In this document: positions 706 through 63,440 of the stretch, in pieces
How the letters are laid out: every line of letters starts with the position of its first letter
Position numbering within the stretch: position 1 is the first letter of the stretch
From: Planctomycetota bacterium
Lineage (GTDB): Bacteria; Planctomycetota; Planctomycetia; Planctomycetales; Planctomycetaceae
Length of the DNA: 64,000 nt
Reading direction: 5' to 3'
Assembly (NCBI GenBank): GCA_027624335.1
Contig: JAQBWV010000004.1
Location: 1-64,000, forward strand
Notes under the pieces: generated by a model
The model's database searches: none
Told to the model about the DNA's origin: nothing
What the model saw: the letters and a program-made list of their open reading frames with translations, nothing else
Position numbers and translations under genes: made by a program

Positions 706-797
706 GTCGACGTTCCTGCAGGCGACGGTTTGTCGTGGAATATTGAACCAGTGTCGAGGCGAGTCCTGAGGCTCCGCACGTCGTCGGGCGAGCGTGC

Positions 798-1742: not shown

Positions 1743-1844
1743 CGTTGGCTCCTGGAATTCCTGTTCCGAGTTTTTGTGAGACTCTCAGTCAGAGGATAGT
1801 TTTCGGCCATCCAGTATTTCGCTAAGCATAGATGGCAGACATGT

Positions 1845-3086: not shown

Positions 3087-3155
3087 GTGTCTCCTCCGTG
3101 AGACCGTCTCGAACGAAATGTGACGCAGCCCGGGTGGTTGTGACTAGAACGCCGA

Positions 3156-3947: not shown

Positions 3948-4029
3948 TGTCCTGCCTCCATGTGTTGATCACGTCGACGTGTTTGCTCGCCTTGTGAATG
4001 ACCGGCAGATACCGATCAGCAAGCGATGT

Positions 4030-4794
4030 CTAACCACCTACTGATTGCAGCAACCTGCCGAGCGATTCGTCCTGAATCCGGATCATGTTGATGTTGGCTT
4101 CGAATGCTCGTGATGTTTCGATCATGGCCGTCATTTCCTGAATCGGACTGACTCCCGACGCTTCCACAAAACCTTGCCTTACCTGCACCGCGTCGAATGC
4201 GGGAGGCGTCTTTGCCTGTGTTTCATACAGGCTGTCGCCCGTTTTTCTCAGTTGATCTGAGGGGGCCGAGACAAGATCAATCTGCCCCAGTGGGATCTGC
4301 TGATTGTCGGCCATAATTGCCGCAACCCGACCGTCGCTGGCGATCGAGATGCCCGCTGCTGTTGCCGGAATCTGAATCGGTGTTCCAGCGGTGTTGAGAA
4401 CTCTTAGCCCCTGATTCTCGGTGGCCAGTTCACCGTCGATGTTTCTATGCAGCTGACCATTGCGAGTCAGATACTGTTTCTGCCCGTCGGAGACTCGCAG
4501 GAAACCATCGCCTGACAGACCGATGTCATATTGTCGGTCAGTCCGCTGCAGGGCTCCGTTCCGGAAGTCGGTCGAAATCTGATCGACCGCCAGCGCACCT
4601 GGTTCCCGTTGCCGTTCGCCATCCATGTGTACCGGAATGTCGCGTCTCAATTCTTCCGGCTTGAACATCTGAAACGTAGCCACGTCCCGCTTAAACCCTG
4701 TGGTTGAAGCGTTTGCCAGATTATTCGCAATCACGTCCTGCCGGATGGACTGGACGTTAGCGCCATGTGACGAAAGGTAGATTCCGTGGATCAT
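4030..4794 (-). CDS. flgF: Flagellar basal-body rod protein, FlgF-like
   Basis: This is a proximal rod protein of the FlgF/FlgG family, 254 residues from the chosen start. The N terminus carries the rod signature NVQSIRQDVIANNLANASTTGFKR, and the middle has RQYDIGLSGDGFLRV. The C-terminal helix region is SGVSPIQEMTAMIETSRAFEANINMIRIQDESLGRLL. The shorter segment after the N-terminal helix, without the FlgG-specific FEDMFYQ stretch, argues for FlgF. The frame is open up to 4851, but the ATG at 4794 (MIHGIYLSSHG) places the rod signature at the normal distance from the N terminus. It is the first recognised gene of the leftward flagellar run. Confidence 0.9.
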   Translation of the reverse strand: MIHGIYLSSHGANVQSIRQDVIANNLANASTTGFKRDVATFQMFKPEELRRDIPVHMDGERQREPGALAVDQISTDFRNGALQRTDRQYDIGLSGDGFLRVSDGQKQYLTRNGQLHRNIDGELATENQGLRVLNTAGTPIQIPATAAGISIASDGRVAAIMADNQQIPLGQIDLVSAPSDQLRKTGDSLYETQAKTPPAFDAVQVRQGFVEASGVSPIQEMTAMIETSRAFEANINMIRIQDESLGRLLQSVGG

Positions 4795-4857
4795 CTTGCC
4801 ATTCCAAGCATTACTATCTGACCGGCACCGTCGAGATGCGCGTGGAGCCATCTTTCG

Positions 4858-4965
4858 TCAGATCGGCAGAAAGGTGCCCGAATCTTCAACGTAATCCATA
4901 AAGTTTTCGAAATCGGAAAAGTTTTCGCAGATTACCCACTTGTTCCACTCGTGAGAGATGCACAT
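4858..4965 (-). CDS. Possible 35-residue small protein upstream of flgF
   Basis: A short open frame starts at an ATG preceded by GGAGG at an ideal 5-6 base spacing and encodes a 35-residue acidic peptide rich in aromatic residues (MCISHEWNKWVICENF, then DFENFMDYVEDSG). The frame is open further upstream, with ATGs at 5004 and 5211, but those extensions look like non-coding sequence. It ends 63 nt before flgF on the same strand. I recognise no family. A well-placed ribosome binding site and non-random composition are the only support, so chance occurrence is quite possible. Confidence 0.25.
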   Translation of the reverse strand: MCISHEWNKWVICENFSDFENFMDYVEDSGTFLPI

Positions 4966-5348
4966 CCAATCCTCCAGGCAGTAGCCAGCAACACGACAAT
5001 TCATCGTGTTCGTTGGATTCCTCGGGCCAGCGGACTGCGTCTGCCGCTTGCCGGTACGTCGTGTAGCCTCGCCAGAAACACCTGATTCATGACGATGGAA
5101 GGCGTAAGAAACCGGGAAGCAACACGTTCTCCTACCGTCGGCGGATTTCAATGATGGTCGGATATCGTTGCTTCCCTGGTTCTCAGGGGCTGGCGAACTA
5201 TGACAGGCCATCGTTCCCGCTGCCTGCGCAGCTGAACTCGCAGACCGGTTGTGAGTACCGCGAACTTCGCCAATAATCGCTCTCAGTCGAGTGGCTTGTC
5301 ATTGCCGCTCGAACGTCGGACAGCGTCTTCTACACAGGACCATTCGCG
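4966..5348. other. Intergenic region between the flagellar run and the lipoprotein gene
   Basis: This 383-base stretch separates leftward flgF from the rightward lipoprotein gene, so it must hold the promoters for both. I see no convincing gene, hairpin terminator or flagellar sigma-28/sigma-54 promoter. Confidence 0.4.
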
Positions 5349-6305
5349 ATGCGAGTTTCCATGAATGCCAGCGTGATTGCAGCCGTGACCGTTTGCCTGT
5401 TCGCTGGCTGCACCGGAGGATCGTCTCCAGATTCAACGACCTCGGCAGGTTCGGTGGACGCAGCGTCCAACACCGATTCAGCGACAAAAGCCGTCGAGTC
5501 CGGAGCAACAGAATCAAAACCAACCGCATATCGGCCAGTTCAACTCGGAGGGACATCCACCGCGACAGCAACGGGTACCGACGAGGTTGCAGGAGCGTCG
5601 GAAGTATCGACGGCGCCACCGAAGTTCGAAGACATCGTCAAGGCCCTGAAGCCAATTCAAATTATGCTTGGCCGCTGGCAGGGAATTATTCAGAAAGCCA
5701 GTAAGAACGAAGTTCACGACTGGGTGTGGGATTTGAAATCCGATCCTGTCTTTCCAGCGCTCGTACTCGACATTACAGATGGCGAGTTTTTCACGAACGC
5801 TCGGATTACCTTCGACCCACGAATCGGCAAGTACCAGATGACGACGAGCGACGCGGAGAACATCAAAAGGTCGTTCGTCGGCGAGTTCACAGCTGCCCCT
5901 AAGGATGTGCCCAGCGAGGATGGCAAGACCGTCGAGCGGACGTTTGAGCTGCAGTTGACCGAGGTTTTCGGTGAGCCGCGAGGTACCCGTTTTCAGTACG
6001 TTTTCAAACAACAACACAACAACCGTTACCTGGTGGAAGTGAAACGTGCTCGCGGCACAGCGGGCTTTCGCCAGATTGATGTCATCGGGTCACAGCGTGA
6101 AGGTGTCTCGTTCGCGAAGGCCGATGACGACTACGGCGACAAGACGTGCATCATCTCCGGTGGTCTCGGCACATCGACGGTTACCTACAAAGGCAAAACC
6201 TACTACGTCTGTTGTTCAGGCTGCAAAGCCGCCTTTGACGATGAACCGGAACGCTGGATCGCTCGACTGGAAGAGCAGAAGGCCGAAAAGATGAAATCCA
6301 ACTGA
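5349..6305 (+). CDS. Lipoprotein with C-terminal YHS-like metal-binding domain
   Basis: The 318-residue product begins with a lipoprotein signal and the lipobox LFAGC at about residue 20, then a Ser/Thr/Ala-rich linker to about residue 85. The middle domain (about 95-235) contains W, beta-strand-rich text such as GRWQGIIQKASKNEV and LVLDITDGEFFTNARITF, and I do not recognise it. The C terminus (about 260-310) resembles a YHS/TRASH domain: DKTCIISGG, then YKGKTYYVCCSGCKAAFDDEPERW, with Cys residues placed to bind a metal. Secreted YHS proteins are usually linked to copper or other metal handling, but that role here is inference. ACAGGA lies upstream of the ATG. It is followed on the same strand by the SET-domain gene 150 nt later. 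Confidence 0.8.
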   Translation: MRVSMNASVIAAVTVCLFAGCTGGSSPDSTTSAGSVDAASNTDSATKAVESGATESKPTAYRPVQLGGTSTATATGTDEVAGASEVSTAPPKFEDIVKALKPIQIMLGRWQGIIQKASKNEVHDWVWDLKSDPVFPALVLDITDGEFFTNARITFDPRIGKYQMTTSDAENIKRSFVGEFTAAPKDVPSEDGKTVERTFELQLTEVFGEPRGTRFQYVFKQQHNNRYLVEVKRARGTAGFRQIDVIGSQREGVSFAKADDDYGDKTCIISGGLGTSTVTYKGKTYYVCCSGCKAAFDDEPERWIARLEEQKAEKMKSN

Positions 6306-6455
6306 CACCTTAGCACCCTTTCGATTGCGGCCTGACCTCGCTGTGCAACGTCAATATCTCGTACTTGCAGCATGGCAAAACACGACCGGTGACTGGCGGG
6401 AGCAGATCTCGCCGCTGGCAGTGTGTACTCAAGAAGTTTCAGCAGGGAATAAAAC

Positions 6456-6902
6456 GTGTTAGGCAGGAAGTCAAAAACACTGGGCGTCAAAGCGGCTCCG
6501 GCGAAGCATGGTATGGGACTCTTCGCGACGAGAAGGTTCCAGGCAGGACAGGCGATTGGTGAATTGACCGGCAAACGGATCGACGATTCCAACTATGGTT
6601 CGGAATACTGCATCGATCTCGGAGACGACTGGTCTCTCGAACCGGACGAGCCATATCGGTTCGTCAATCATTGCTGCACACCGAACGCCAAGCTGTACCT
6701 GATATTCGACGACGATGACCCCATCGACAAGCGCAAGGTCGTTCTGGAAGCCACTCGAAGCATTCAGGCCGGCATGGAAGTTACCATTGATTATGAATGG
6801 CCCGCTGATGGAGCCATTCGCTGTGGATGCGACAGCGCTGAATGTCGTGGATGGGTGGTCGATCCGGCAGAACTCCACCTGCTGAAGAAGAAAGCCCGCT
6901 GA
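6456..6902 (+). CDS. Small SET-domain protein (putative protein lysine methyltransferase)
   Basis: SET enzymes transfer methyl groups from S-adenosylmethionine to protein lysines. The 148-residue protein is essentially one SET domain: GMGLFATRRFQAGQAIGEL at about 20-38; the pseudoknot motif NHCCTPNAKL (canonical NHxCxPN) at about 71-80; and VTIDYEW (canonical DY) around 110. A post-SET Cys cluster, CGCDSAECRGW, follows and would bind zinc. All key residues expected for AdoMet binding appear present. Translation starts at a GTG (6456), which gives the correct domain start. Small free-standing SET proteins are known in bacteria, but their substrates are mostly undefined; none is indicated here. 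Confidence 0.85.
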   Translation: MLGRKSKTLGVKAAPAKHGMGLFATRRFQAGQAIGELTGKRIDDSNYGSEYCIDLGDDWSLEPDEPYRFVNHCCTPNAKLYLIFDDDDPIDKRKVVLEATRSIQAGMEVTIDYEWPADGAIRCGCDSAECRGWVVDPAELHLLKKKAR

Positions 6903-6961
6903 CGCAGCTGGCAGCGACACACTGCTGAATTCAACTCGCAGCCGATTCGTTATCCGGCGAT

Positions 6962-9900
6962 TCAGTTTGCCGTTTCTTTCGCAGATTCAGGCACCGTTCC
7001 CGTCAATTCCTCCAGCGCTTTCCGCAAGGGTCCTGCGAGTTTCGGCCCACCGCCGACAAACAGCCTCGCCACATTGCCTTCACGGTCAATCACGACCGTT
7101 TGCGGAATCGACGTAACGGAATACCGGGCTGCCGCCACGCCGTCCATGTCCAGCACAACGGGGACGTCCAGTTTGTGTCGTTCGAGAGTAGACTTGATCT
7201 CAGCCGGTTGTTCTTCCATGTTGACTGCCAGCAGTCGGACCTTGTGATCGGCAAAGTCCTCGACGACCTCATCGACCAGAGGCATCGTCTGAAGGCAAGG
7301 ACTGCACCATGTGGCCCAGAAGTCGAGGACGATGATCTCGCCCCGGTGGTCCGACAGCCGGAAATCATCCCCGGTCAGCTGTGCCAGGTTGAAATCCGGA
7401 GCCGCCTGTCCGACGAGAGGAGAGTCGGTCCCGCTCATCACGCCACCGCCAGAACCGTCGGACCCCGCCAGGACGAACTTCGGTTCCATGGCGTAGTGGA
7501 GTTTCCAGCGATGATAGGCCAATTGTGCCGCCGCCTGTTCGATGTAATTGCCGAACAGAAGTTGATCGATCTCTGACAGGTCCGCCTGGCAGTCACCGAG
7601 AATGTCGCTACTTCCAGAAAGCGTCGAGCCCGTCAGCCTGGTCGCCAGAAATGTCAGCCGATCCGAATTCCGAATGACGGTTTGAACACGAGTGGCGTCC
7701 GTACTGACCGGTTCCGGCTGGTGTTTATTGTCGTTGGCACTGGCAACCACTGCTGACACCTCCGGCTTCGGAACGACCGAGACAGTCTCGGCTGTACCTT
7801 CAGTTCCCGCGGAGTCGCCGGGCGTGCTATCAGCGATGTCCTCTGGTTGTTGTTTTTCGACGGGCGTCAGTTCGTCCGAGTGGAGCCAGATGACCTGGGA
7901 AACTCGCTCTCGTGGAATTTCACGGTTGGACAGTCGAACTTCGACAGTCAATGCATGCTCGTTCATGGCAATAAGACGACCTCGCAGAAAGTCACCATTG
8001 CTGGAGTAGATGAGGTGAGTCGGAGGCGATCCTTTCTGAAGACGCGGCAGCGTCAATAGTCGCTCGCGCTTCGTAGCGTCCAACGTCGGTGACCCAGTCC
8101 GACCTGCAAGTTCAACGCCCTTGATTCGGTCGTGTGCGATGAAAGTGGCACTCGAAAGAGGAGTCGTGAAATGCAGGCCGTCCTCATCCACCGAGACAAC
8201 ATCGCAGGGAATGGTATCGCCACTTCGCAAATGCAATGTCTGTGCTGCTTTAACCCTCGGCCGTTGGGTTGGAGGCAATGGCCCGGTCAACAATTGTTTA
8301 AAAACCTCACCAAACCCCTGAATCGCGGGCTTACGCTGATTGATACGAATCGCCACGCCGTTTCCTTGTTGAACGCCTACCGTCGATTTCACGACCGGCT
8401 TCGGAGGGTCGCGATAAACGATTCTTCCGGCCAGGTTCTTGGCCAGCGGGCTTGAATTCACACTGTAGTCCGGATGCCAGACCAGACAGCTTCCATCAGG
8501 CTGTTCTGCACCGTCAACCAGCCGGCCTGGCAACTTCAACCCGTCAATTTCCAATCGTCCCGCGAGACCTGCAGCGGTCGCCTTGAACTCCACCTTCGAT
8601 TTCGAAAGTTGCTGCCCGATCGATCGCAGACCGTCCAGCGGCAGTTTCAACGGTTCACGAATACTCGGGCACGACAGCAGGACATGGCCTTGCTCAATGC
8701 CGTTGAAGGTACCGCTGAATCTGGAACCGTCCAGGTAAGCAATCCGGACCACTTTAGAGAAGTCCACTGGTTCTGAAGTATCCGGGAGAGGATCCGCGGT
8801 ATCAGGCGTTGAGTCTGTAGCGATCGGCGCGGTCGGGATCGGAGACAGGAACACATCCGAAACCGTGGCAGCGTTAACTTCAATTGTCGAGCCGTCATTC
8901 AACAGTGTGAATGCGCGAGCTGCCTGGTCGAAGCCGGTGATCTGTCCGTAAACGATCGTGCCATCCGTCTGGTGGATTCGCGATTTATCTGTCTGCACTT
9001 TACGAGGAAGAATTCCATCCCAGTTAGCGATCCGCAAATGTGTCAGCCTGATGTCCCCCTTGCGGTTTGAGAGCCGCAGGCTGCCTCTCGTCTTAGGAAT
9101 TCTGGAATGGAGTTTCAGACTGGCTTTCTGCTGACCGTTGCTGGAGTAAATGCTCAGCCTCTGTTTTTCCTGATCAAGATAAAGTTGCACTCGGACTCCG
9201 CCAGGACCACTGACAACAGGTGTCACTTCGGCAACATCAGCGTCACGCTCGGATTCGCCCATCACAACGACAGTGTCATCCCAGACCTCAAACCGGAAAG
9301 CGTCGTCTGTCTTCGTCGCTCTTGCATTTCCGATCGGCAGACCACTGACGTCGAGGCCGCTATCAGCCCCCAACACGAATTCGAAGTCGGGCAGATCATT
9401 CCAGGACAGTTCAAACTCAATGGCCGAACGAGCGGGAATTGAGAAAGTTCCAAACAGCGATGCGTTGGGGCTGGCCGTTCGAGGCCAACCGCCGTCACTG
9501 CTCCAGGCGTCTGTTGACGCCTCGCCATTCAGCGTCTGTGACCAGTCATCCAGACCGCCTGGCCCGAGGTAGATCAAAGACGTCTCCTTCCAGCGATAAA
9601 TTCGCTGGACGTCAGATCGGTTGATGTGGACAGTCCCTGCGTGAGCTGTCGTAACACTCAAAGACGCGTCTGAAAGTTCTGAGATATCGCCATAAAGCAC
9701 GTCTCCCCCGGTGAGCTCAAGGCAATACTCTCCGCCTGGTTCTGGTCGCGGAACCCTTGTGGGAAATTGAGCCATCGAGATGCTGCTGAGCGGAAATTCA
9801 AACGGATGAGTGAACAGCGGGCTTTTCCATCGAATCTGGCCCGACTGAGCTGAGTCGAGAATACTGCCTGGCAGAATGCCATCATTCGCGAGATGCAGTA

Positions 9901-22129: not shown

Positions 22130-24094
22130 TCAAAAATCTCCGCTGACAACGATCAGTTGTTTGCCATCAGGTGTCCAGCAGACGTCAGTGTTGTTACGAG
22201 TTTCATCCTGCCCTGGAAGTAACGCTGGCGGCACATCCTGACCAGGATCAAATTCGTAGAGTTGCACATGCTTGCGCTCTTCACAGCGCATGCCGAAGAC
22301 AATTCTGTTTCCGTCCGGATGCCACGCGAAGTCGGAGTTAATGTTCTGTTTCGTCGAGTGATGGACTTTCGGCTCAGGTTTTTCGCTGACCGTGTCCAGT
22401 GTCACGACTTCCTGTGTTCCGTCAGCTTTCTGGCCCTTGAAGCAGAGAAATCGACTGTCCGGAGACCATGTCATGTTCCAGAAGATCTGCTTGTAATCAT
22501 GTGACATTAAGAGGCTGCGGAACTTCTTCGTTTCCACGTCGTACGACTTGACGATAAAGCCTTCCGTGAATGCGATTGTCTTCCCGTCCGGAGACCACTG
22601 CGCTCCCCATCCATTCTCACGGATCTCCATTGGGTTCCAGCCGTCGATGTTGACGATCCGAATGCCGCTTTGAGAACACACCAGGCGTTTTCCATCCGGC
22701 GACCACGTCGGCATCGATCCACTGCCAATCTTTTTCGGCTCGCTGCCGTCCACGCGGTTGCCGTGGAGCTCCAGGGTAAACAGCGTTGGGCTGGTTCTCG
22801 GCTTGACGCTCCAGGCATCAAACGCGAGTTGTTTTCCGTCTGGTGAAACCGCCGGAGACCCGCAGGCGAAATGAGTTTCGAACCGAAACAGAGGCCGCCA
22901 CTGTGTGCCATCCTCGTTCACGATGAAGAACTCATCGGGAGTCTTCGTCTTGAATTCGTATTCATCCAGCGAAAGTACACCGTCCGCGTCAGCATCAAGC
23001 CGGTGAAAGAACAGCCAGCGCAGCAATGGAAAGTGTGGCGAGTCAAACTTGAACTCGGCGTACGTTAATTCCTGATCGCCGTCGACATCGACAGGTGGCA
23101 CCTGCCACCGCAGATACGGATTGGCGAGCATCGTCAAGCGGTACTCGTCGAGCGACAACACACCGTCTCCGTCAGTGTCGAATCCCGGAAACACGTTGGC
23201 AGTCATGTTTAGCCGCCAAGCGGGAATTCCCGTACGCAATTCGTCGTTGTCGACCAGCGCGTCCAGATTCGTGTCCAGATTTCGAAACTCCGCGATCGGG
23301 TCAACCCGCCCGCGATTCGGCAAAGAAATCCATTCGGTGAACGAAACGCGACCATCCTTGTCGGCATCACCTTGAGTAATGATCTCAGCAATCAGGTCGC
23401 CTAATTTGGTCCGAGATTCAAATTCAGCCTTTTCCAGCAGGTCGTCATTGTTCCCATCAATCTGCCGAAACCCTGACAGGTTGCAGACTCGACCGTCCGG
23501 CGAGCGAAGCAGTCTGCCATCGCTGCGACGTACCCCGATCTGAATTTCAAGAAAACGGCGAGCTTCCTGGCGATTCACATTACCGTCGCCGTTCTCGTCG
23601 GCCTCTTTCACGTCAGGAGTGGTCGTCTGCGAACCGAAGGTGCCGATGAAAAGTTGCACGAAAGTCCAGGCATGAATCACTCGGTCGGGATGATCGTTCC
23701 AATCATCGAAAGACTTATCCATGGCAACAACGGCGTGGTCGACGAATGCGTCCAGCGGATCAGGCAGCGCACCACGGTCATCAGGCGGCGCGACGAATGG
23801 ATTTGTCTTGAATTCATTCAGTGAGAGCTTGCCGTTGCGGTCTACGTCGAACAGTTTGAAATCCCGTTTTAAGATCGCCTCTTTGCCGGGGATGTGCTTC
23901 AGGTATTCATCCAGCTGAAGCCCGTCATCCTTGTTAATGTCGAGGGTCGCGAAACGCCGCGCAAACCTGTCCGGAGTCTGGACGGGACTCTGATCTGCAG
24001 CGTCATCGAAACCGGTGCCGAAAATTGCCAGTAGGGCCAACGCCACTGTCGCGACTCGTGCGTTGCTGATGATGCCGGTTCCGCGAACGATCAT
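22130..24094 (-). CDS. Secreted EF-hand (nine loops) and WD40-like beta-propeller protein
   Basis: The 654-residue product has a signal peptide (ATVALALLAIFGTGF). Residues ~45-395 contain nine EF-hand-type loops, for example DINKDDGLQLDE, DVDRNGKLSLNE, DENGDGNVNRQE, DADKDGRVSFTE, DTDGDGVLSLDE and DADADGVLSLDE; the Asp/Asn/Gly spacing predicts calcium binding. Residues ~410-654 form a TolB/PD40-type beta-propeller with repeated WSPDGK-like motifs (AVSPDGKQLAF, TWSPDGKRLVC, QWSPDGKTIAF, AWHPDGNRIVF). It sits between the MoxR ATPase (59 nt away) and DUF58, an unusual position for such a protein. A calcium-dependent periplasmic sensor or adaptor for the MoxR/VWA complex is a reasonable inference, not shown. 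Confidence 0.88.
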   Translation of the reverse strand: MIVRGTGIISNARVATVALALLAIFGTGFDDAADQSPVQTPDRFARRFATLDINKDDGLQLDEYLKHIPGKEAILKRDFKLFDVDRNGKLSLNEFKTNPFVAPPDDRGALPDPLDAFVDHAVVAMDKSFDDWNDHPDRVIHAWTFVQLFIGTFGSQTTTPDVKEADENGDGNVNRQEARRFLEIQIGVRRSDGRLLRSPDGRVCNLSGFRQIDGNNDDLLEKAEFESRTKLGDLIAEIITQGDADKDGRVSFTEWISLPNRGRVDPIAEFRNLDTNLDALVDNDELRTGIPAWRLNMTANVFPGFDTDGDGVLSLDEYRLTMLANPYLRWQVPPVDVDGDQELTYAEFKFDSPHFPLLRWLFFHRLDADADGVLSLDEYEFKTKTPDEFFIVNEDGTQWRPLFRFETHFACGSPAVSPDGKQLAFDAWSVKPRTSPTLFTLELHGNRVDGSEPKKIGSGSMPTWSPDGKRLVCSQSGIRIVNIDGWNPMEIRENGWGAQWSPDGKTIAFTEGFIVKSYDVETKKFRSLLMSHDYKQIFWNMTWSPDSRFLCFKGQKADGTQEVVTLDTVSEKPEPKVHHSTKQNINSDFAWHPDGNRIVFGMRCEERKHVQLYEFDPGQDVPPALLPGQDETRNNTDVCWTPDGKQLIVVSGDF

Positions 24095-48396: not shown

Positions 48397-50319
48397 ATGA
48401 TCCGTCCCGGTCCAGACATTGTCGAAGGTGCAAGCCGACTGCCGCTGCAGGGCGGAACAGCTGCGGGAACCGGACCGGCTCCTGCGACGACGTGTGGCCT
48501 ATCGGCCAATTCGAAATCTCAGTCTGCGGGTAAAGCGGTTGCATGTGCCGACGGTGTATTACTGGATCGATGTCTCGAAAAGCTCACCGAAGGTCGCACC
48601 AGACTTGCAGGCATGAATGTCGGGCAGCGGATCGCACTACTTGAGCAATGCGTTGATGGAATCAGCAGCGTGGCGACTGAATGGGTCGATGTCGCCTGCG
48701 AATCCAAGGGTATTTCTCGAAACAGCCCCGAACGATCGCAGGAGATTCTCGGTGGCCCGGTCGCGGCTCTGCGGCAGTTGCAATTGTTTCTCCAGACAAT
48801 GAGACAGATCGATCGAACCGGCAGACCGAAGCTGCCAGCGAGTCCCGTGCGAAAAAGTGACGGTCGAATTGGGATTCGCGTGACGCCAGGCTCGGGTTTC
48901 TTTGACGCGGTCACGTTTCTCGGATTCCGAGCGACAACATGGCTGCTGCCGGATGTTGGCGAAGACAACCTTGAGGCGTCGCTGGCACCCGCATACCGGT
49001 CTCTGGAAAACACAGGGACGTCACTCGTGCTTGGTGCGGGGAATGTCACTGGAATCCCCGCCGCCGACATGTTGACGAAACTGTGTGTCGACAATCGTGC
49101 CGTGCTGCTGAAAATGAACCCGGTTAACGAGTGCGTCGGACCAGTCTTCGAACGAGCCTTCGCACCGCTGGTCGAGAACGACCTGCTGAGAATCATTTCC
49201 GGAGACGCCAGCATCGGCGCCGCAGCCGTGGCTGATGAACGCGTTGACGATATTCTCATCACCGGGTCAGGCGAGACTCACGATGCGATCGTCTGGGGTT
49301 CATCCGGAACCGCTCGCGAAGAACGTCGACGTCGTAACGAGCCGACGCTGACCAAACCGATCGGCAGCGAGCTGGGCAACGTCACACCGTGGATTGTGGT
49401 TCCGGGTGCGTACTCAAAGATGCAGCGGACTTTCCAGGCGGAAAACATCGTTGCTTCGATGACCAACAATGCGGCATTCAACTGCGTAGCGACTCGCGTG
49501 ATTGTCACCTGGAAACAATGGCCGGATCGTGAACGATTCCTGCAGGGGATTGAGGCGGCTCTGTCCCGAGTGCCGCAGCGAGTTGCCTACTATCCCGGCG
49601 CCGATAAGCGTTTCGAACAGTACTCGGGAATGGCTCCGGACGTTGCTCAGCGAATGCTTCGAAATACAGCAGGCGGCGGCGTTTCTGGAAGTCGGACCAG
49701 TCCCGACGGAACCACAACTTTCGTCGCCGGCACCAACCGAATGGAGGGCACACTCCCCTGGACGCTGATTCGAAACGTCAACCCCGAAGTAGATTCGCCG
49801 CTGTTCGCCAGCGAATCGTTTGTCTGTGTCTGCGCGGAGGTCCCGATTGACGCGGCGAGTCCGGAAGAGTTTTTGCGGAAGGCCACGGACTTCTGCAATG
49901 AGAAACTCTGGGGCACACTGGCGGCTTCCGTCACCGTACCAGGGCGATTTGGCAGGAAGCAGGCGACTCGCCGAGTACTTGATGACTGCACCGACAAACT
50001 TCGCTACGGCGTTGTGGCTCAGAATCAATGGTCCGGCGTCGTCTTCGCACTGATGAGTCCCCCCTGGGGCGGGCATCCCGGTTCGACCCTGCAGGACATT
50101 CAAAGTGGCTCCGGCTGGGTTCACAACTCCTTCATGCTTACCGGGATCGAAAAAACCGTACTGGAAGCACCGCTCGTCGTGCTTCCGAAACCTGTCTGGC
50201 TGGCATCACACCCGAGACCCGAATCGGTTGCGTGGTCGTTGTGTCGGCTCTTCGAGAATCCATCGCTGTGGAACCTCTCGACACTGACATATCACGCAGT
50301 GAAGGGAGCACTGGTCTGA
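48397..50319 (+). CDS. Aldehyde dehydrogenase-superfamily protein
   Basis: The 640-residue protein is longer than typical ALDHs (~490). After an N-terminal ~110-residue extension it shows ALDH motifs: VLGAGNVTGIPAADMLTKL, NRAVLLKMNPVNE, ITGSGETHDAIVW, the Glu-containing SELGNVTPWIVVP, and the nucleophile Cys in NNAAFNCVATRV. The late segment WGGHPGSTLQDIQSGSGWVHN is unusual. It could oxidise an aldehyde to an acid, or reduce acyl-CoA to aldehyde; its place after an acyl-CoA ligase favours an acyl-CoA/aldehyde interconversion, but this is inference. Confidence 0.82.
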   Translation: MIRPGPDIVEGASRLPLQGGTAAGTGPAPATTCGLSANSKSQSAGKAVACADGVLLDRCLEKLTEGRTRLAGMNVGQRIALLEQCVDGISSVATEWVDVACESKGISRNSPERSQEILGGPVAALRQLQLFLQTMRQIDRTGRPKLPASPVRKSDGRIGIRVTPGSGFFDAVTFLGFRATTWLLPDVGEDNLEASLAPAYRSLENTGTSLVLGAGNVTGIPAADMLTKLCVDNRAVLLKMNPVNECVGPVFERAFAPLVENDLLRIISGDASIGAAAVADERVDDILITGSGETHDAIVWGSSGTAREERRRRNEPTLTKPIGSELGNVTPWIVVPGAYSKMQRTFQAENIVASMTNNAAFNCVATRVIVTWKQWPDRERFLQGIEAALSRVPQRVAYYPGADKRFEQYSGMAPDVAQRMLRNTAGGGVSGSRTSPDGTTTFVAGTNRMEGTLPWTLIRNVNPEVDSPLFASESFVCVCAEVPIDAASPEEFLRKATDFCNEKLWGTLAASVTVPGRFGRKQATRRVLDDCTDKLRYGVVAQNQWSGVVFALMSPPWGGHPGSTLQDIQSGSGWVHNSFMLTGIEKTVLEAPLVVLPKPVWLASHPRPESVAWSLCRLFENPSLWNLSTLTYHAVKGALV

Positions 50320-56539: not shown

Positions 56540-57421
56540 TCACGGCCGCCGAGGCTGAAGTTTGCCGAGCCACTCCAGTGACTGTTTCTGCCAGGCGTCC
56601 CACATGGGGCCTTTGTAGCCGTTCAGGCCGTGGCCACCGGACGGCAGTTGCAGGTACTCTGTTGGGATGTTGTGAGCCTTCAGGGCATTGTGAAAGTCCT
56701 GGCTGTTGGCAGGGACGACGACCTTGTCATCCAGAGCGTGTGCAAGAAACGTCGGGCACGTTTCGGCGGTGACCTGTTTTTCGTTGCAAAACAGGTCGAT
56801 CAGTTCGTCGGACGGTTTGTCTCCGAGCAGGTTTCGTCGCGAACCGCCGTGAGTTGTTTTGTCCATCGTGACAACCGGGTAGACAAGGATGGCGAAGTCC
56901 GGCCGCGACGACTGACGAGTGATCGGATCTTCTGACTGAGCGACTCCCGAGTCAAAATGTGTCGCGGCTGTTGAAGCCAGATGCCCACCGGCAGAGAACC
57001 CGATGATGCCGATTCTCTTTGCATCGAGATTCCATTGTTTCGCGTTTCCGCGGGCCGTTCGGATTGCTCGTTGAGCATCCAGCAACGGTACGTACGATCG
57101 GCCCTTTGGCAGGCGATACTCAAGAACAAGACCCGTGATGCCGTGGCTGTTGAGCCACTTCGCGATGCCGTGTCCTTCTCCGCCGGTGACCAGTCCACCG
57201 TAACCGCCGCCGGGGCAAATCACGATCGCAGTGCCGTTTGGCTGTGCCGGGCGATGCAGCGTCAGGCGGACGTTGACATCCTCATTCGTTCCATCGCCAA
57301 TCGGGGCCTTGCCGTTCCACAGTGACAACGTCTCCGGCAGGTTCGGAGATTCAGCCGCGAAAGCAGAGATGCAAACCGTACATTGAAAAAGGATTGTGGC
57401 GAGAGTCAGCAGGTGACGCAT
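56540..57421 (-). CDS. Secreted alpha/beta-hydrolase (esterase/lipase-like)
   Basis: The 293-residue product has a signal peptide (LLTLATILFQCTVCISAFAAE). Hydrolase motifs: the oxyanion region ICPGGGYGGL, the nucleophile elbow GFSAGGHLAS (GxSxG), an Asp in HALDDKVVVP and a His in PSGGHGLNGYKG. All three catalytic residues have candidates. This is the BD-FAE/acetyl-xylan-esterase-like group, so deacylation of polysaccharide or small esters is plausible. The ATG at 57421 has GAGGA upstream; in-frame extension to 57514 enters the C-terminal region of the adjacent giant gene. It lies downstream of the giant surface-protein gene on the same strand. Confidence 0.9.
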   Translation of the reverse strand: MRHLLTLATILFQCTVCISAFAAESPNLPETLSLWNGKAPIGDGTNEDVNVRLTLHRPAQPNGTAIVICPGGGYGGLVTGGEGHGIAKWLNSHGITGLVLEYRLPKGRSYVPLLDAQRAIRTARGNAKQWNLDAKRIGIIGFSAGGHLASTAATHFDSGVAQSEDPITRQSSRPDFAILVYPVVTMDKTTHGGSRRNLLGDKPSDELIDLFCNEKQVTAETCPTFLAHALDDKVVVPANSQDFHNALKAHNIPTEYLQLPSGGHGLNGYKGPMWDAWQKQSLEWLGKLQPRRP

Positions 57422-57503
57422 GAGGATTCCTCGAAGAAGTGGAAATCGCGAAACAGAGAAGGCTGCAACGCATTCTATCGCGATCCACGTTTTACGAGCA
57501 GTC

Positions 57504-60500
57504 TCAGCCACCAATCAACTCAGAAGGATCCTGCCCCGTCAGGTAGTAGTACTCGATGAGTTCCGCCAGCGTGGTCGGCACTTCACGAGGCGGCAGGTCT
57601 CGCTGATCAGTCCCTGGAACAAGCGGTGCATTCGGATCGAGGACGACGACGACGACGACGTCCAGCGTGTTGCCGGCCGGATCGGAAATCGTAAATGTCA
57701 GTTCGATCGACTGAGTTCCGTCGTCGGCCGTAAGAATTGGACGCTCCGCCAGATCGTTGAACCGGCGGCGGAATGTCATATCACCGAAACTGTCGTCAAA
57801 GATTCGACCGTGTACAACGAAACCGTGCCTCAACCCCAGCGGGTTTACACGAAGTTCTTCGTCCGTCATGGTCAGTTGGAATTCAGGCGCAGTCACATCT
57901 CCAAAGATGAAGAACGTCCGCGTCTGACCATCGACGATTCGCGTGAGAAGATTCCAACCTTCCCGCAGATCAGCCGTCGCAGCGTCAATGACCAGCTTGC
58001 CGGTTCCGTCGATGTATCGAAGCTGGTAGCCCGCAAGCTGGTTGGTGAACTTCGCACTGCGAAGTTCCAGCGGCGTTTGATACTCGGCTCGCGAACCGAT
58101 CAGACCGCTGACTCGATCGACCTCGACAGCATCCTGTGGAGCGATCGTTCCTCCAGGCGCGATGCCGTACTGCGTCCAGAGTTCCGAATTCGTCTTGCCG
58201 ATCAATTCTGGCGGCATCCAGTCCGGAGCGGTCTCCGCCGGGAAAGGCACAAAACTGGCGGCCTGCTTGTGGTAGTAAACCTGGTGGTTGTTAAACAGGA
58301 CTGTGCCCAGCCGCACGATGTCCGGCGTGAAGTAGGTCTCGATGTCTCGATTCTTAACAGAGATTTCTCCGTCCATGAAGATGTCGAACTGTTGCCGATT
58401 TCGAAGTTGCGAGTCCGTCAGTGTGGCGAATTCCGGATCGCCCAGAATGTCAACTTCACGAAGAGAGTCGTGAGCAGTGCTGATTCGAATCGCCTGCACG
58501 GCTGCGAAGTAGCCGTTGCGAATGACCGTGGTGCGGTTAACCGGAACGTCGATGCCCACGCTCCAGCCCACGACATGCACGTTTTCGTAGGTCATCTGGT
58601 TGGTCACGTTGTTTCGACCAAGAGCCGTTCCGTTCGGCCGATCGACGTTGCCAATCAACGTGGCGTTTCGGACTGTCGTTCGCCCGGTGTACGGGTTGAA
58701 AATCCCGCGACCGACGTTCCACGCGGTGAAGTCGTCGATGTATGACTGCCCTGCGTTGGAGCTCGTCTGGTGAAACCAGGTTTCCAGACCGCTGCGACTT
58801 CCGAACGCGGTGTTTCCACTGACCTTTCTCAGCGGCACCATGCCCACCGGAATTTCGTCGCGTCCGGCCGCAAGACTCGGATCGGCCATGTTGACCGTCT
58901 TGAACTTTGCTTCGCTGGACGTTGTGAAGAAGTTGAAGGCCGAATCACGAGCACCTGTCGAGATATTGTCAACCACCTCGACGCCCGGCCCCTGCAGCCA
59001 GAATCCGTGACCACCGTGGCCAAAGTCAAAGATGTCTTTGCGATCTTCCAGTCCATCTCCGGAACCGCTGTTCGCAATCGACAGGTTCCCGACGAACGAG
59101 CCGATCTCGTCACCGAACTCCGTAAAGAACGACGAACCGACCACATTAAAGGCGACGTTGTGCGTGAAATTCACATAGCTCTGATGATTGACGAACCCCA
59201 AACCAGGACTGTCGACAACGACACTGCCGGAGACTTCGCCTGGGTTGTCCGCGTAGGTTGCCCCTGCACGGTGGAAGTGGACGGCGTAGCGACCTCGCTG
59301 GTTCAGGCCGGGCACTAGTTCGTCGTTGTCGTTCAGGACGGCGTCGTTGGCCGGATTGCGTTTGTCAGTTCGCCCAAGTCCGTAGAAGCCGACGTTTTTG
59401 ACTTCGGCTCGCTGATTATGCATGAACATGACGTGCCCGCGTCGCTGTGTAATCGAGGGATTCTCCGACATAACTACGACGTTGCGGTTCATGTTTGAAA
59501 CATAAACACTGAGTTCCTGGCCTGCAGGCGTGAGATGGCTGTACGCCAGAGCCTGAATGCCAGGCATGTCTGAGTCAGCATCGATGATTACGACATTGCC
59601 ATCGATAGAGACGATCTCCAGCTCCTCGTCCTGAGTGTTCTGAGGATTCGAACTGGTTCCTGTCAGCACCAGTCGGTTGCCGGCTTCCCAGTTGACCGGG
59701 ATCGCATCGAGCACGAGTTGCGTGTCACCTCGCCGCGGATCGGTCGCGAGCGAGACGTAGGGAGTCACTTCCTCGCCAAACATCTTCGTCGTGCCATGCG
59801 AGATGACTCCGCGGCTGATTTGAATCGGATCCCAATTGAGATCGATGTCGGCACCGTTGTCGGCGATGACGATTCTGGCAGCGACACCGTGTTCAACGGG
59901 ATTGTCTTCGGTTCCGATCTGAAGCAAACCGTTACCGTCAACAAACAACGTGTCAAGCAGCATCTGCGTGTCGTCGTCGGTGTCCCAGTTGAGGGTTCCA
60001 TCAACACGCACCCAGTTCATCGAGTCGTACTGGATGACGTCGAAGGTGACGGACGTGCCGGAAGAAATCAATACCTGAGCATCGTCGCCTGGAACAACTC
60101 CTCCACCCCAGATCGCCGCGTTGGACCATTCACCACTCGCGATGCTGACGAACGTTGCCGCTTCGTGCGGGACCAGCGCGAGCGCAGCCAGGTGCTCCGA
60201 CCGTTTGGCCGGATCATCGACATGCGGCACGTTTGGATGGTGCCCGGAAGTCTCGTCGACCGACGAGTCGCTATGTTCGTGCCCCGCTTCCGACATTGTG
60301 ACGGCTGCAGTCTCGGAAGTGGCTGTGTGTGCAAGCGTAGCTGCCGCTTCCGTCATCGGGCCGTGATCTTCGTCAGGTGCAAACATTGCCGTCGGCTGGC
60401 GATTCAAGCCAGCATGAACGGCATTTGGCAGTGCCAGCAACTGGTCCTGACTTAGTGTCGCACGCGCCGCGTCTGACATCTTCAGGAAGTACCACTGGTT

Positions 60501-63440
60501 CGAAATCGATCCCATTTGCTCGCGAGTCAAGTGGACGACCTGGTCAGCCGACAGATACTGAAAGTCGTACTGCGTCAGCGACTGAATCTGCACCGTCGTC
60601 AGTGAGTTCCGTTGAGCGGGGCTGATGTATCGTATGGAAATCTCTCGGACGTTCAGACGCTGCACCTGCTCGTCGGTCAGGCTGTACCGAGCTTCCTCAG
60701 CGATACCATTGAAGTACCAGCCGTTACGGATTCCGGCAATCTGATCTCCAGTCAAATGAGTGATCTGCTCTTCATTAAGCCGATCAAAGTCTCGATACGA
60801 AAGCGTCTGAATTTGAGCGACGCTCAACCATCCCACCTGCTGATCGGTGAGGCCGACGAGTCGCACTGTTGCGACATCAATGCTCTGAATCTGAGCTCCC
60901 GTTAGTGCTGCGCGGGCACTGTCAGAAACTCGGTAGAACCACCATTCATTCGGAATGCTTTGCAGTTGTTCTGCGGTCAAGTGCGGAGTTTGAGCGTCAG
61001 TCAGAAATTCGAAACTCCGATAGCCGATGGTCTGCACCTGCGCCGCTGAAAGTTCTGCGATTTGTGCGGCCGTCAGCTGGGCGAGCCCAACCGTTTCCAC
61101 AGACAATGCTCTGATCTGGTCACCTGTCAAAGCTGCTCGCACATCATCCGGAATTCTCTCAAACCACCATTGATTCGGAACCTGCTGCAACTGCTCGCCC
61201 GTAAGTTGCGGCGACTGAGCAACATTCAGACGTTCGAACTCTCGATATCCGACGCTCTGAATTTGTGATGTAGTCAGGACCGCAATCTGTGGAGTCGACA
61301 GGGAGCCGAGTCCCAGAACGCCAACATTCAGTGATTGAACCTGTGCGTCGGTCAGTGCGGCTCGTGAGTCTTCCGGAACCCGCTCGAACCACCAGTAATT
61401 CGGAATCGTCGCCAACTGCTCAGCCGACAGATGCACGATCTGTCCAGGGCCGAGCCGCTCGAAGTCTCGATACCCTAGCGCATGAACCTGCTCGGGCGAC
61501 AACTGCGCAGACTGTTCCGAAGACAGTCCGGAAACTCCCGTGACACTGACATCAAGAGCCTGCACCTGTTTCGGAGTCAACGCGGCACGAGCCTCTGCTG
61601 AGATGTTGCCGAACCACCAGCTATTCGGGATTGTGGCGATCTGCCCGGTCGTCAACTCAGGAGTCTGCGTTGCATTCAGGTAACGGAAATCGCGATACGA
61701 CAGACTGCGAATCTGCTCGACGCTTAGTTCCGCCCGCTGAGACTCAGTCAACGCCCCCAGATGAATTTCACTGACGTTGAGTGCTCTGACCTGGTCGCCG
61801 GTCAGAGCTGCGCGAGCTTCTTCAGGGCTGCGCGTAAACCACCACTCATTGGGAATACTCGCGACCTGTTCATTCGTGAGATCGACGATCTGCCCGACCG
61901 TCAGGTATTGAAAATCGCGATAGCCAAGCGACTGAACCTGCTGACGCGACAATGCTTTCACCTGCTGCAGCGTCAAAGCACCGACGCCGACTTTCTCCAC
62001 AGCCAGCGTTTTGATCTGCTCGGGCGTGATGGCCGCGCGAGCTTCCACCGACATCCGGCCAAACCACCACGAATTCGGAATCGTTGCCACCTGATCAGCA
62101 GACAGCAACGGCGTCTGCGACTCGGTCAGGTAATGGAACTCCCGGAAACTCAGCGATTGAATCTGGTCGAGCGCGAGGACGGCTAACTGAGTCGGCGTCA
62201 GGCCTGACAGTCCCAGATTATCGACACGCAAAGCCTGCACCTGCGCAGCGGTCAGGACACTTCTCGCCTCGGCTGACAAACGGCCGAACCACCATGAATT
62301 CGGAATCGCGGACACCTGATCGGCACTGAGCAGCGGTGTCTGCTGTGGCACAAGATGTTCGAATTCTCTGTAGTTAAGGCTCTGAATCTGAGCTTCTGTC
62401 AGTACAGAGATCTGGTCTCCAGCAAGACCACTCAGCCCGATGTCGGCAACGTTCAATGCCTGCACCTGTGAAGGTGTCAATGCAAAACGAGCCGCTTCCG
62501 GAATTCGGCTCAGGTACCAGCCGCTCGGAATCGAAGCGACCTGTTCGATCGTCAGGTACGGTGTCTGCTCGGCGGTCAGCGATTCGAAGTGTCGATAAGT
62601 CAGCGCCCGAATCTCGCCCACGGACCTATTGCCAACTGGCATCTCGGCAATTGTCGTCATCGCGGAAGCCGACGCCGGCCGTTCCGGCGGCACCTGACCT
62701 GCCGCCATCATGTTGCGGATTTCGTGCTGCTCGTCGCTGAGCATCTCGACGTCAGAATCACCTCTGACATCTTCCAGTTGCGCGAGTGACAACTCAGCAA
62801 CCTGCTCTTCCGTCAGGAGGTCAAGCCGCGAACGTCCAACATCAAGCATTCGAATCTGGTCGCCGGTCAGAGCTTTCCGCGCCTCGTCCGTCAACTTGCG
62901 AAGCTGGTAATAACCGCTTAGTCGACCAGTTTGCTCGGCAGACAGATTCGGAATCTGACTCGGTGTCAGGCTACGAAGATCCCGCAGATTCAATGACTGA
63001 ACCTGCTCGACCGTAAGATCGTCGATCTGATCGTTGGTCAGCCCCGCTAATCCGACCCTGCGAACATTCAACCATGCAACCTGCTGAGTACTCAGAGCTT
63101 GTCGCGAGCTCAAAGGAATGAGTCGAAATGCAAATCGGCTGTCAATGTCCTGAATCTGTTGCTGGCTCAGAAACGGCACCTGGTCAGCGGTAAGTGTCCC
63201 GAATTGCGCCGTACGCAGACTCTGAACGTGCTCAAGAACCGCGATCTGATCGATCGAAGGAACCACCTTTTGAGCTGCGTCAGCGTTACCGAGAGTTATG
63301 GCGCTAAGAAGTTGTCTGACCTCAAGAGTTTCCAAATTAAGGCAGCTTCCAAATCGGATAGAACTTCGTCGGCGAGCCGGCTTCGTCCCAACAAACGAAG
63401 AGACAAGTAGCCGACGCCAGCGAATCACACGATTCTGCAT
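57504..63440 (-). CDS. Giant surface protein: LTxxQ-repeat region plus G8/CEMIP-like beta-helix
   Basis: A 1978-residue protein. The N terminus is basic and holds NLETLEVRQLLSAI, the LEPR-XLL-type export motif of giant planctomycete proteins. Residues ~50-1000 consist of LTxxQ(V/I)xxL helical units, arranged as about ten 75-residue repeats marked by IPNxWWFxR and LxYRDFxxL motifs. A His/Glu-rich linker follows. Residues ~1100-1230 resemble a G8 domain (ASGEWSNAAIWGGGVVPG, LFVDGNGLLQIGTE), and the next ~450 residues a parallel beta-helix with CEMIP-like GRYAVHFHRAG and GHGFWLQGPG. A beta-sandwich-like C terminus closes it. CEMIP-type proteins bind or cleave hyaluronan; whether this protein acts on a polysaccharide is unknown. 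GGAG stands 8 bases before the ATG. Confidence 0.88.
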   Translation of the reverse strand: MQNRVIRWRRLLVSSFVGTKPARRRSSIRFGSCLNLETLEVRQLLSAITLGNADAAQKVVPSIDQIAVLEHVQSLRTAQFGTLTADQVPFLSQQQIQDIDSRFAFRLIPLSSRQALSTQQVAWLNVRRVGLAGLTNDQIDDLTVEQVQSLNLRDLRSLTPSQIPNLSAEQTGRLSGYYQLRKLTDEARKALTGDQIRMLDVGRSRLDLLTEEQVAELSLAQLEDVRGDSDVEMLSDEQHEIRNMMAAGQVPPERPASASAMTTIAEMPVGNRSVGEIRALTYRHFESLTAEQTPYLTIEQVASIPSGWYLSRIPEAARFALTPSQVQALNVADIGLSGLAGDQISVLTEAQIQSLNYREFEHLVPQQTPLLSADQVSAIPNSWWFGRLSAEARSVLTAAQVQALRVDNLGLSGLTPTQLAVLALDQIQSLSFREFHYLTESQTPLLSADQVATIPNSWWFGRMSVEARAAITPEQIKTLAVEKVGVGALTLQQVKALSRQQVQSLGYRDFQYLTVGQIVDLTNEQVASIPNEWWFTRSPEEARAALTGDQVRALNVSEIHLGALTESQRAELSVEQIRSLSYRDFRYLNATQTPELTTGQIATIPNSWWFGNISAEARAALTPKQVQALDVSVTGVSGLSSEQSAQLSPEQVHALGYRDFERLGPGQIVHLSAEQLATIPNYWWFERVPEDSRAALTDAQVQSLNVGVLGLGSLSTPQIAVLTTSQIQSVGYREFERLNVAQSPQLTGEQLQQVPNQWWFERIPDDVRAALTGDQIRALSVETVGLAQLTAAQIAELSAAQVQTIGYRSFEFLTDAQTPHLTAEQLQSIPNEWWFYRVSDSARAALTGAQIQSIDVATVRLVGLTDQQVGWLSVAQIQTLSYRDFDRLNEEQITHLTGDQIAGIRNGWYFNGIAEEARYSLTDEQVQRLNVREISIRYISPAQRNSLTTVQIQSLTQYDFQYLSADQVVHLTREQMGSISNQWYFLKMSDAARATLSQDQLLALPNAVHAGLNRQPTAMFAPDEDHGPMTEAAATLAHTATSETAAVTMSEAGHEHSDSSVDETSGHHPNVPHVDDPAKRSEHLAALALVPHEAATFVSIASGEWSNAAIWGGGVVPGDDAQVLISSGTSVTFDVIQYDSMNWVRVDGTLNWDTDDDTQMLLDTLFVDGNGLLQIGTEDNPVEHGVAARIVIADNGADIDLNWDPIQISRGVISHGTTKMFGEEVTPYVSLATDPRRGDTQLVLDAIPVNWEAGNRLVLTGTSSNPQNTQDEELEIVSIDGNVVIIDADSDMPGIQALAYSHLTPAGQELSVYVSNMNRNVVVMSENPSITQRRGHVMFMHNQRAEVKNVGFYGLGRTDKRNPANDAVLNDNDELVPGLNQRGRYAVHFHRAGATYADNPGEVSGSVVVDSPGLGFVNHQSYVNFTHNVAFNVVGSSFFTEFGDEIGSFVGNLSIANSGSGDGLEDRKDIFDFGHGGHGFWLQGPGVEVVDNISTGARDSAFNFFTTSSEAKFKTVNMADPSLAAGRDEIPVGMVPLRKVSGNTAFGSRSGLETWFHQTSSNAGQSYIDDFTAWNVGRGIFNPYTGRTTVRNATLIGNVDRPNGTALGRNNVTNQMTYENVHVVGWSVGIDVPVNRTTVIRNGYFAAVQAIRISTAHDSLREVDILGDPEFATLTDSQLRNRQQFDIFMDGEISVKNRDIETYFTPDIVRLGTVLFNNHQVYYHKQAASFVPFPAETAPDWMPPELIGKTNSELWTQYGIAPGGTIAPQDAVEVDRVSGLIGSRAEYQTPLELRSAKFTNQLAGYQLRYIDGTGKLVIDAATADLREGWNLLTRIVDGQTRTFFIFGDVTAPEFQLTMTDEELRVNPLGLRHGFVVHGRIFDDSFGDMTFRRRFNDLAERPILTADDGTQSIELTFTISDPAGNTLDVVVVVVLDPNAPLVPGTDQRDLPPREVPTTLAELIEYYYLTGQDPSELIGG
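60440..62640. repeat. Tandem 225-bp coding repeats in the giant surface-protein gene
   Basis: About ten repeats of 75 codons each, recognisable by the WWF/WYF codons spaced near 225 bp from about 62515 down to about 60500. Each holds five to six LTxxQ units. Two more degenerate copies appear toward the N-terminal end (to about 63300). Sequences differ enough that they are not recent duplications. Confidence 0.85.

What the first reader, a model, noticed from the sequence alone, without database searches (positions are those of the whole stretch)
57504..63440. Giant LTxxQ-repeat protein with a G8/CEMIP-like region
About ten 75-residue repeats with conserved IPNxWWF and YRDF motifs, each made of LTxxQ units, are linked to a domain set related to animal hyaluronan-active CEMIP proteins. 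The repeat family is unusual and the combination suggests a cell-surface adhesin or polysaccharide enzyme.
Basis: partly seen in the sequence, partly recalled or inferred. Interest (0 to 1): 0.6.

Follow-up and report, generated by a model that had tools for sequence, protein, structure and literature searches.

The report
Planctomycete CEMIP-like protein with repeat stalk
This is a very large, probably cell-surface bacterial protein that carries the same beta-helix core as the animal hyaluronan-handling proteins CEMIP and TMEM2 behind a chain of ten helical repeats of exactly equal length; the arrangement recurs in related bacteria, and the residues the core shares with the human protein point to a possible active site that has not been located.

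Summary
P0001 (1978 aa, window 57504-63440, minus strand) has ten LTxxQ repeats in a strict 75-residue register (lag-75 score 41 SD above shuffles), a G8 domain and a CEMIP-type beta-helix. Pfam already names all three pieces (PF20080, PF10162, PF24606). A profile of 21 bacterial cores finds human TMEM2 (8c6i) at E = 1.5e-34, and the predicted core matches 8c6i best by fold. The repeats are predicted (pLDDT 94.7) as a solenoid of nine short helices per 75 residues, with no confident match among solved structures. The repeat-plus-core fusion occurs in at least eight planctomycete genomes, including cultured Lacipirellula limnantheis, and forms one clade.

A hyaluronidase label is not supported: the GG/lectin domain holding the residues reported as needed for hyaluronan degradation in TMEM2/HYBID is absent. 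But 11 polar residues are invariant in 78 bacterial cores and ten are identical in TMEM2; by predicted secondary structure several fall on successive coils of the helix, a testable candidate active site. Best reading: a surface-displayed beta-helix polysaccharide-processing protein on a repeat stalk. New variant of a known kind.

The parts
63300..63440 (-). Residues 1-47: long basic N-terminus ending in LETLEVRQLLSA, planctomycete-type export signal
   Evidence: Sequence; Pfam Planc_extracel PF07595 at 34-47, E 0.051, below cut-off; LExR-type motif in many homologs
62532..63263 (-). Residues 60-303: degenerate LTxxQ copies before the regular array
   Evidence: Repeat-profile hits 1.9e-19 and 1.1e-10
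60411..62531 (-). Residues 304-1010: ten LTxxQ (ALTTAQ) repeats in exact 75-aa register (nine complete, the tenth partial)
   Evidence: Motif positions, gap-free alignment, z = 41, PF20080; AlphaFold model of 4 repeats pLDDT 94.7
60171..60338 (-). Residues 1035-1090: His-rich linker ending in the shared HxDDPxKxxEHLA-type motif
   Evidence: His mean 8.2% in the stretch of up to 80 aa before the G8 domain of 76 homologs, against 3.0% over the whole proteins
59757..60110 (-). Residues 1111-1228: G8 domain, predicted as the start of the beta-helix
   Evidence: PF10162 6.3e-14; model
58371..59756 (-). Residues 1229-1690: remainder of the right-handed parallel beta-helix (CEMIP_beta-hel at 1382-1513)
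   Evidence: PF24606; profile hit to TMEM2 8c6i 1.5e-34; fold match 4.7e-14
59106..59537 (-). Residues 1302-1445: stretch with the invariant polar residues H1302 R1319 H1336 R1357 R1384 Y1385 H1388 H1390 H1419 E1441 E1445 (candidate active site)
   Evidence: 100% identical in 78 cores, the query included; all but R1357 identical in TMEM2
57507..58235 (-). Residues 1736-1978: C-terminal beta-rich tail, modelled with low confidence
   Evidence: pLDDT mostly below 50; shared only with close homologs
56540..57514 (-). Neighbouring alpha/beta hydrolase (BD-FAE esterase-like), same strand, directly downstream; possible partner
   Evidence: PF20434 1.7e-17; same order in congener G295 only

Best explanation
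The gene encodes an exported, probably surface-anchored planctomycete protein in three functional sections. The N-terminal LTxxQ array folds as a rigid solenoid of very short helices and acts as a stalk or adhesive rod whose length can change in whole 75-residue steps. [quoted passage not shown] That core most likely binds and cleaves, or otherwise processes, an extracellular (probably acidic) polysaccharide. Its working site is most likely the invariant set H1302, R1319, H1336, R1384, Y1385, H1388, H1390, H1419, E1441 and E1445, possibly with a bound metal. Shown: repeat register, homology, predicted fold class, recurrence of the fusion, invariance of these residues. Inferred: surface location, stalk role, catalysis, substrate class, metal.
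For: Repeats. Core homology: all 11 members of A6 match G8 and CEMIP_beta-hel, profile hit to TMEM2 8c6i at 1.5e-34, best fold match 8c6i at 4.7e-14 with probability 1.00, followed by a capsule lyase, phage depolymerases and other beta-helix polysaccharide enzymes. The fusion recurs in L082, L083, L084, L086, L087, L093, L094 and the query and is one clade, SH-aLRT 92. Related cores carry other extracellular modules instead, such as RTX arrays (L102), consistent with an exported core on exchangeable surface modules. Eleven polar residues are 100% conserved in 78 cores from Planctomycetes, Cyanobacteria, Proteobacteria, Myxococcota and others. In the model, H1336, H1388/H1390, H1419 and E1441 lie in or next to the first strand of consecutive coils.
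Against: No enzymatic activity is known to me for any bacterial member; even for human TMEM2 activity is disputed (PMC10206443 and PMC10276149 against, PMC10474455 for). No polysaccharide-utilisation genes sit nearby except one esterase. The export signal match is below Pfam's cut-off, and no anchoring motif was identified.
Confidence: 0.58

Rival explanations
1. The core is a non-catalytic carbohydrate-binding or structural beta-helix: the whole protein is an adhesin or surface-layer component that holds cells to polysaccharide or to each other, and the invariant residues maintain the fold.
For: Human TMEM2, the only solved relative found, showed no hyaluronidase activity or strong hyaluronan binding in one study and no assignable active site (PMC10206443). 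A long repeat array is typical of adhesins; the same repeats occur without the core in RTX/cadherin-type surface proteins (G318, G527, G528).
Against: Eleven polar residues (His, Arg, Tyr, Glu) kept at 100% across phyla are more than a bare beta-helix scaffold would be expected to need. Most other fold neighbours are polysaccharide-degrading enzymes.
Confidence: 0.27
2. It is a bacterial hyaluronidase working as animal CEMIP/TMEM2 is claimed to.
For: Clear homology of the beta-helix.
Against: The GG/lectin-like domain 1 (TMEM2 about 246-418) has no counterpart: the profile goes from position 158 to 166 while TMEM2 runs through about 172 residues, and no GG domain is found in 11 homologs. TMEM2 H248, A303, R265, D273 and D286 and HYBID R187, reported as needed for hyaluronan degradation, lie in that domain (PMC10276149). 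Hyaluronan is not an expected substrate for free-living planctomycetes (general knowledge).
Confidence: 0.06
3. The His-rich linker and invariant histidines make it mainly an extracellular metal-binding protein (zinc or copper capture), not a glycan-processing one.
For: The His-rich stretch before the G8 domain is a common trait (8.2% against 3.0% His), and the invariant set is His-rich.
Against: Only 37 of 76 homologs have 8% His or more in the linker, so it is not universal; no metal-uptake genes were recognised nearby; beta-helix neighbours are glycan enzymes.
Confidence: 0.06

Closest known systems
Human TMEM2/CEMIP2 (PDB 8c6i) and CEMIP/HYBID/KIAA1199
   Same: Homologous G8-started parallel beta-helix; ten of the eleven invariant polar residues identical (TMEM2 H471, R490, H519, R546, Y547, H550, H552, H585, E608, E612)
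   Different: No GG/lectin-like domain 1 inserted in the beta-helix; carries an LTxxQ array and a His-rich linker instead, with a planctomycete-type export signal
Bacterial G8/CEMIP_beta-hel proteins without the array (Roseovarius, Acaryochloris, Adhaeretor, own-genome paralogue on contig C111, and others)
   Same: Same core and same invariant residues; often a His-rich pre-G8 stretch
   Different: No repeat array, or RTX arrays, instead of the LTxxQ array
ALTTAQ repeat, Pfam PF20080, and HeliScrew4 (PDB 9zem)
   Same: Same LTxxQ unit; PF20080 2.7e-23, 9zem 1.9e-20
   Different: Here a higher-order 75-residue unit of nine short helices, with the IPNxWWF and YRDF motifs in the window's genus; the 75-residue length is kept across genera
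Klebsiella K1 capsule lyase and phage tailspike depolymerases
   Same: Right-handed beta-helix fold
   Different: About 10-12% identity, low TM-scores; shared catalytic residues not tested
Mesothelin-type superhelix
   Same: Best Foldseek neighbour of the repeats in the PDB, not significant (E 1.6e-3, TM about 0.2)
   Different: TM-score too low to claim the same fold; no sequence relation tested

Membership tests
CEMIP/TMEM2 beta-helix family (G8 + CEMIP_beta-hel) | G8 domain above Pfam cut-off | tested here: met
   52.4 bits, cut-off 22.9
CEMIP/TMEM2 beta-helix family (G8 + CEMIP_beta-hel) | CEMIP beta-helix above Pfam cut-off | tested here: met
   28.1 bits, cut-off 27.3; all 11 aligned homologs match at E <= 0.01
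CEMIP/TMEM2 beta-helix family (G8 + CEMIP_beta-hel) | Same fold as TMEM2 ectodomain core | tested here: met
   Top Foldseek hit 8c6i, E 4.7e-14, probability 1.00, TM 0.42 by query length; profile 1.5e-34
Animal CEMIP/TMEM2 hyaluronidase | GG/lectin-like domain 1 with Arg187/Arg265 and the other residues reported as needed for hyaluronan degradation | tested here: not met
   About 172-residue gap in the profile alignment; no such Pfam match in 11 homologs
Animal CEMIP/TMEM2 hyaluronidase | Hyaluronan depolymerisation | not testable with these tools
   Needs an assay
ALTTAQ repeat (PF20080) | Score above Pfam cut-off | tested here: met
   81.8 bits, cut-off 26.4, six stretches
Leucine-rich repeat proteins | Beta-strand in every repeat | tested here: not met
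   LRR chains score in sequence searches, but the model (pLDDT 94.7) has helices only
Planctomycete surface/exported proteins | LExRxLL-type N-terminal signal | tested here: inconclusive
   Motif LEVRQLL present; Pfam PF07595 E 0.051, below cut-off

The most novel reading that the evidence does not exclude
The invariant His/Arg/Tyr/Glu set in the beta-helix (H1302, R1319, H1336, R1384, Y1385, H1388, H1390, H1419, E1441, E1445; TMEM2 H471, R490, H519, R546, Y547, H550, H552, H585, E608, E612) is the ancestral catalytic or metal site of the whole G8/CEMIP family, from bacteria to humans. The animal GG domain would then be a later substrate-binding addition, and the bacterial proteins a new polysaccharide-processing enzyme family, here displayed on a modular repeat stalk.
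Probability: 0.35. Interest if true: 0.75.

Novelty: new variant of a known kind. Interest (0 to 1): 0.48.

Why it matters
[quoted passage not shown] A bacterial family that lacks the GG domain but keeps a fully invariant polar set shared with TMEM2 gives a simple and direct test. If the site is catalytic it would name the active site of a medically important family and add a family of environmental polysaccharide enzymes. The 75-residue short-helix solenoid, whose copy number changes in whole units, is also an attractive natural modular rod.

Tried and rejected
Leucine-rich repeat: LRR chains appear in sequence searches, but the model has no strands; rejected. The first Pfam PF20080 genome search missed even the own gene, because single 38-residue units fall below its threshold, so repeat alignments were used instead. 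My early impression that the fusion was limited to one genus was wrong: the named-genome scan and the family search found it in more genera. A paper on a zinc exoprotein that mentions Lacipirellula limnantheis (PMC10957091) proved unrelated. Literature searches for HeliScrew and ALTTAQ found no paper. The viral fold search of the repeats gave only low-TM matches. An alignment of overlapping windows of the array (A3) was mis-registered and discarded.

Full report
OBSERVATION. The open frame at 57504-63440 on the minus strand is real, 1978 aa from ATG to stop with no interruption. The repeat is exact: the IPNxWWF-type motif recurs at residues 304, 379, 454, 529, 604, 679, 754, 829, 904 and 979, all 75 apart. 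Nine complete copies align without a gap with 13 invariant columns, and the lag-75 score is 41 standard deviations above shuffled sequence. Two degenerate copies stand before the array.

WHAT THE PIECES ARE. Pfam names three parts: ALTTAQ repeat (PF20080, 2.7e-23), G8 (PF10162, 6.3e-14, residues 1111-1228) and CEMIP beta-helix (PF24606, 2.1e-6, residues 1382-1513). The N-terminus carries LETLEVRQLLSA, a planctomycete export-type motif, though the Pfam match is below its cut-off. A His-rich linker ending in an HxDDPxKxxEHLA-type motif leads into the G8 domain. The tail after about residue 1736 is modelled with low confidence.

CORE FOLD AND FAMILY. A profile of 21 bacterial cores finds the solved human TMEM2 ectodomain, 8c6i, at E = 1.5e-34; the only other hit is weak (0.14) and looks like chance. 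The predicted core (pLDDT about 90 over most of the first 600 residues of the model) is a parallel beta-helix whose best match in the PDB is again 8c6i, E = 4.7e-14, followed by a Klebsiella capsule lyase, phage depolymerases and other beta-helix polysaccharide enzymes. All 11 members of a closer alignment match both G8 and CEMIP_beta-hel.

WHAT IS MISSING. TMEM2 has a GG/lectin-like domain inserted in the beta-helix. In the alignment the bacterial profile passes from position 158 to 166 while TMEM2 runs through chain positions 164 to 336, about residues 246-418 of the full protein (the +82 offset is inferred from construct and chain lengths and agrees with the unpaired Cys554 named in PMC10206443). 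The residues reported as needed for hyaluronan degradation, HYBID R187 and mouse TMEM2 H248, A303, R265, D273 and D286, lie in that domain (PMC10276149). The bacterial proteins therefore do not meet a defining feature of the animal hyaluronidase, and hyaluronan is not supported as the substrate.

WHAT IS KEPT. Over 78 cores (the query and 77 relatives) from Planctomycetes, Cyanobacteria, Proteobacteria, Myxococcota and other phyla, eleven polar residues are identical in every sequence: H1302, R1319, H1336, R1357, R1384, Y1385, H1388, H1390, H1419, E1441 and E1445. In the 21-row alignment, which includes cores of only 22-28% identity, H1302, H1336, Y1385, H1388, H1390, H1419 and E1441 stay invariant. 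All but R1357 are identical in TMEM2: H471, R490, H519, R546, Y547, H550, H552, H585, E608 and E612. Three caveats: the 77 relatives were fetched with patterns that contain GH[VT]MFMH, GRYxxH and TRN, so conservation at H1336, R1384, Y1385, H1388 and R1319 is partly built in by selection; H1302, H1390, H1419, E1441 and E1445 are not part of those patterns, and the 21-row set was gathered without them. By predicted secondary structure, H1336, H1388/H1390, H1419 and E1441 sit in or next to the first strand of successive coils, as residues lining one face of a beta-helix would. The TMEM2 authors could not assign an active site; this set is a concrete candidate.

THE REPEATS. Four repeats are predicted at pLDDT 94.7 with helices only, nine short helices per 75 residues. 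No solved structure matches at E <= 0.001; by sequence the best relative is HeliScrew4, 9zem, for which no paper was found. Sequence hits to leucine-rich repeats reflect a similar L/Q spacing and are not borne out by the model.

DISTRIBUTION AND HISTORY. The same array is fused to the same core in at least eight genomes: the window's own, two congeners, three MAGs of another genus of the family, a Pirellula MAG and the cultured Lacipirellula limnantheis I41 (the match of the three MAGs to genus g311 rests on equal frame and contig lengths). The fusion proteins form one clade (SH-aLRT 92, one change on the tree), so a single fusion is the simplest history. In the window's family, 10 of 170 genomes carry the repeat; in genus g230 and in G315 it sits without the core in RTX or cadherin-type proteins. 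Repeats are orthologous by position between the window and congener G295 (60-81% along the diagonal, at most 60% off it), G298 has five fewer in register, and Lacipirellula shows an exact three-repeat duplication. The array thus changes length in whole 75-residue units. Related cores without the array often carry RTX arrays instead.

SURROUNDINGS. Directly downstream on the same strand is a BD-FAE-type esterase; the order is kept in G295 but was not seen in the more distant fusion loci. Other neighbours are a Rieske protein, a multihaem cytochrome, a rhomboid protease and fatty-acid genes; there is no recognisable polysaccharide-utilisation cluster. The own genome has a second G8/CEMIP protein without repeats (L076).

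VERDICT. The most likely reading is an exported polysaccharide-processing beta-helix displayed on a repeat stalk (0.58), with a non-catalytic adhesin as main rival (0.27). It is a new architecture built from known families. Its chief value is the candidate active site that it exposes for the whole CEMIP/TMEM2 family.

Noticed in passing
L094 (Lacipirellula limnantheis I41), frame 1779-7082: Repeats 3-5 and 6-8 of the array are identical, an exact 225-residue block duplication, which suggests recent recombination.
   Followed up: partly
L063 (G295), 2205-7481 and 7357-8268: The congener's ortholog is split into two overlapping frames near the end of the core; pseudogene or assembly error.
   Followed up: no
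L076 (own genome, contig C111), 4085-6556: A second G8/CEMIP_beta-hel protein (824 aa, CEMIP_beta-hel 7e-39) without repeats and with an HDHDHLH stretch near its N-terminus.
   Followed up: partly
L079, L168, L169 (genus g230): The same 75-residue repeats in long surface-type proteins with RTX (and, in L079, Big/cadherin) domains and no G8 core.
   Followed up: partly
L067, frame 513-5522 (minus): A G8-core paralogue in G295 carries a long, nearly perfect acidic DETDEGDDENED tandem repeat.
   Followed up: no
window 48397-50319 (+): A 640-aa frame between fatty-acid genes gives no Pfam hit at 1e-5 although parts of it read like an aldehyde dehydrogenase.
   Followed up: no
window 22130-24094 (-): A 654-aa protein with many EF-hands followed by PD40/WD40-type propeller repeats.
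   Followed up: no
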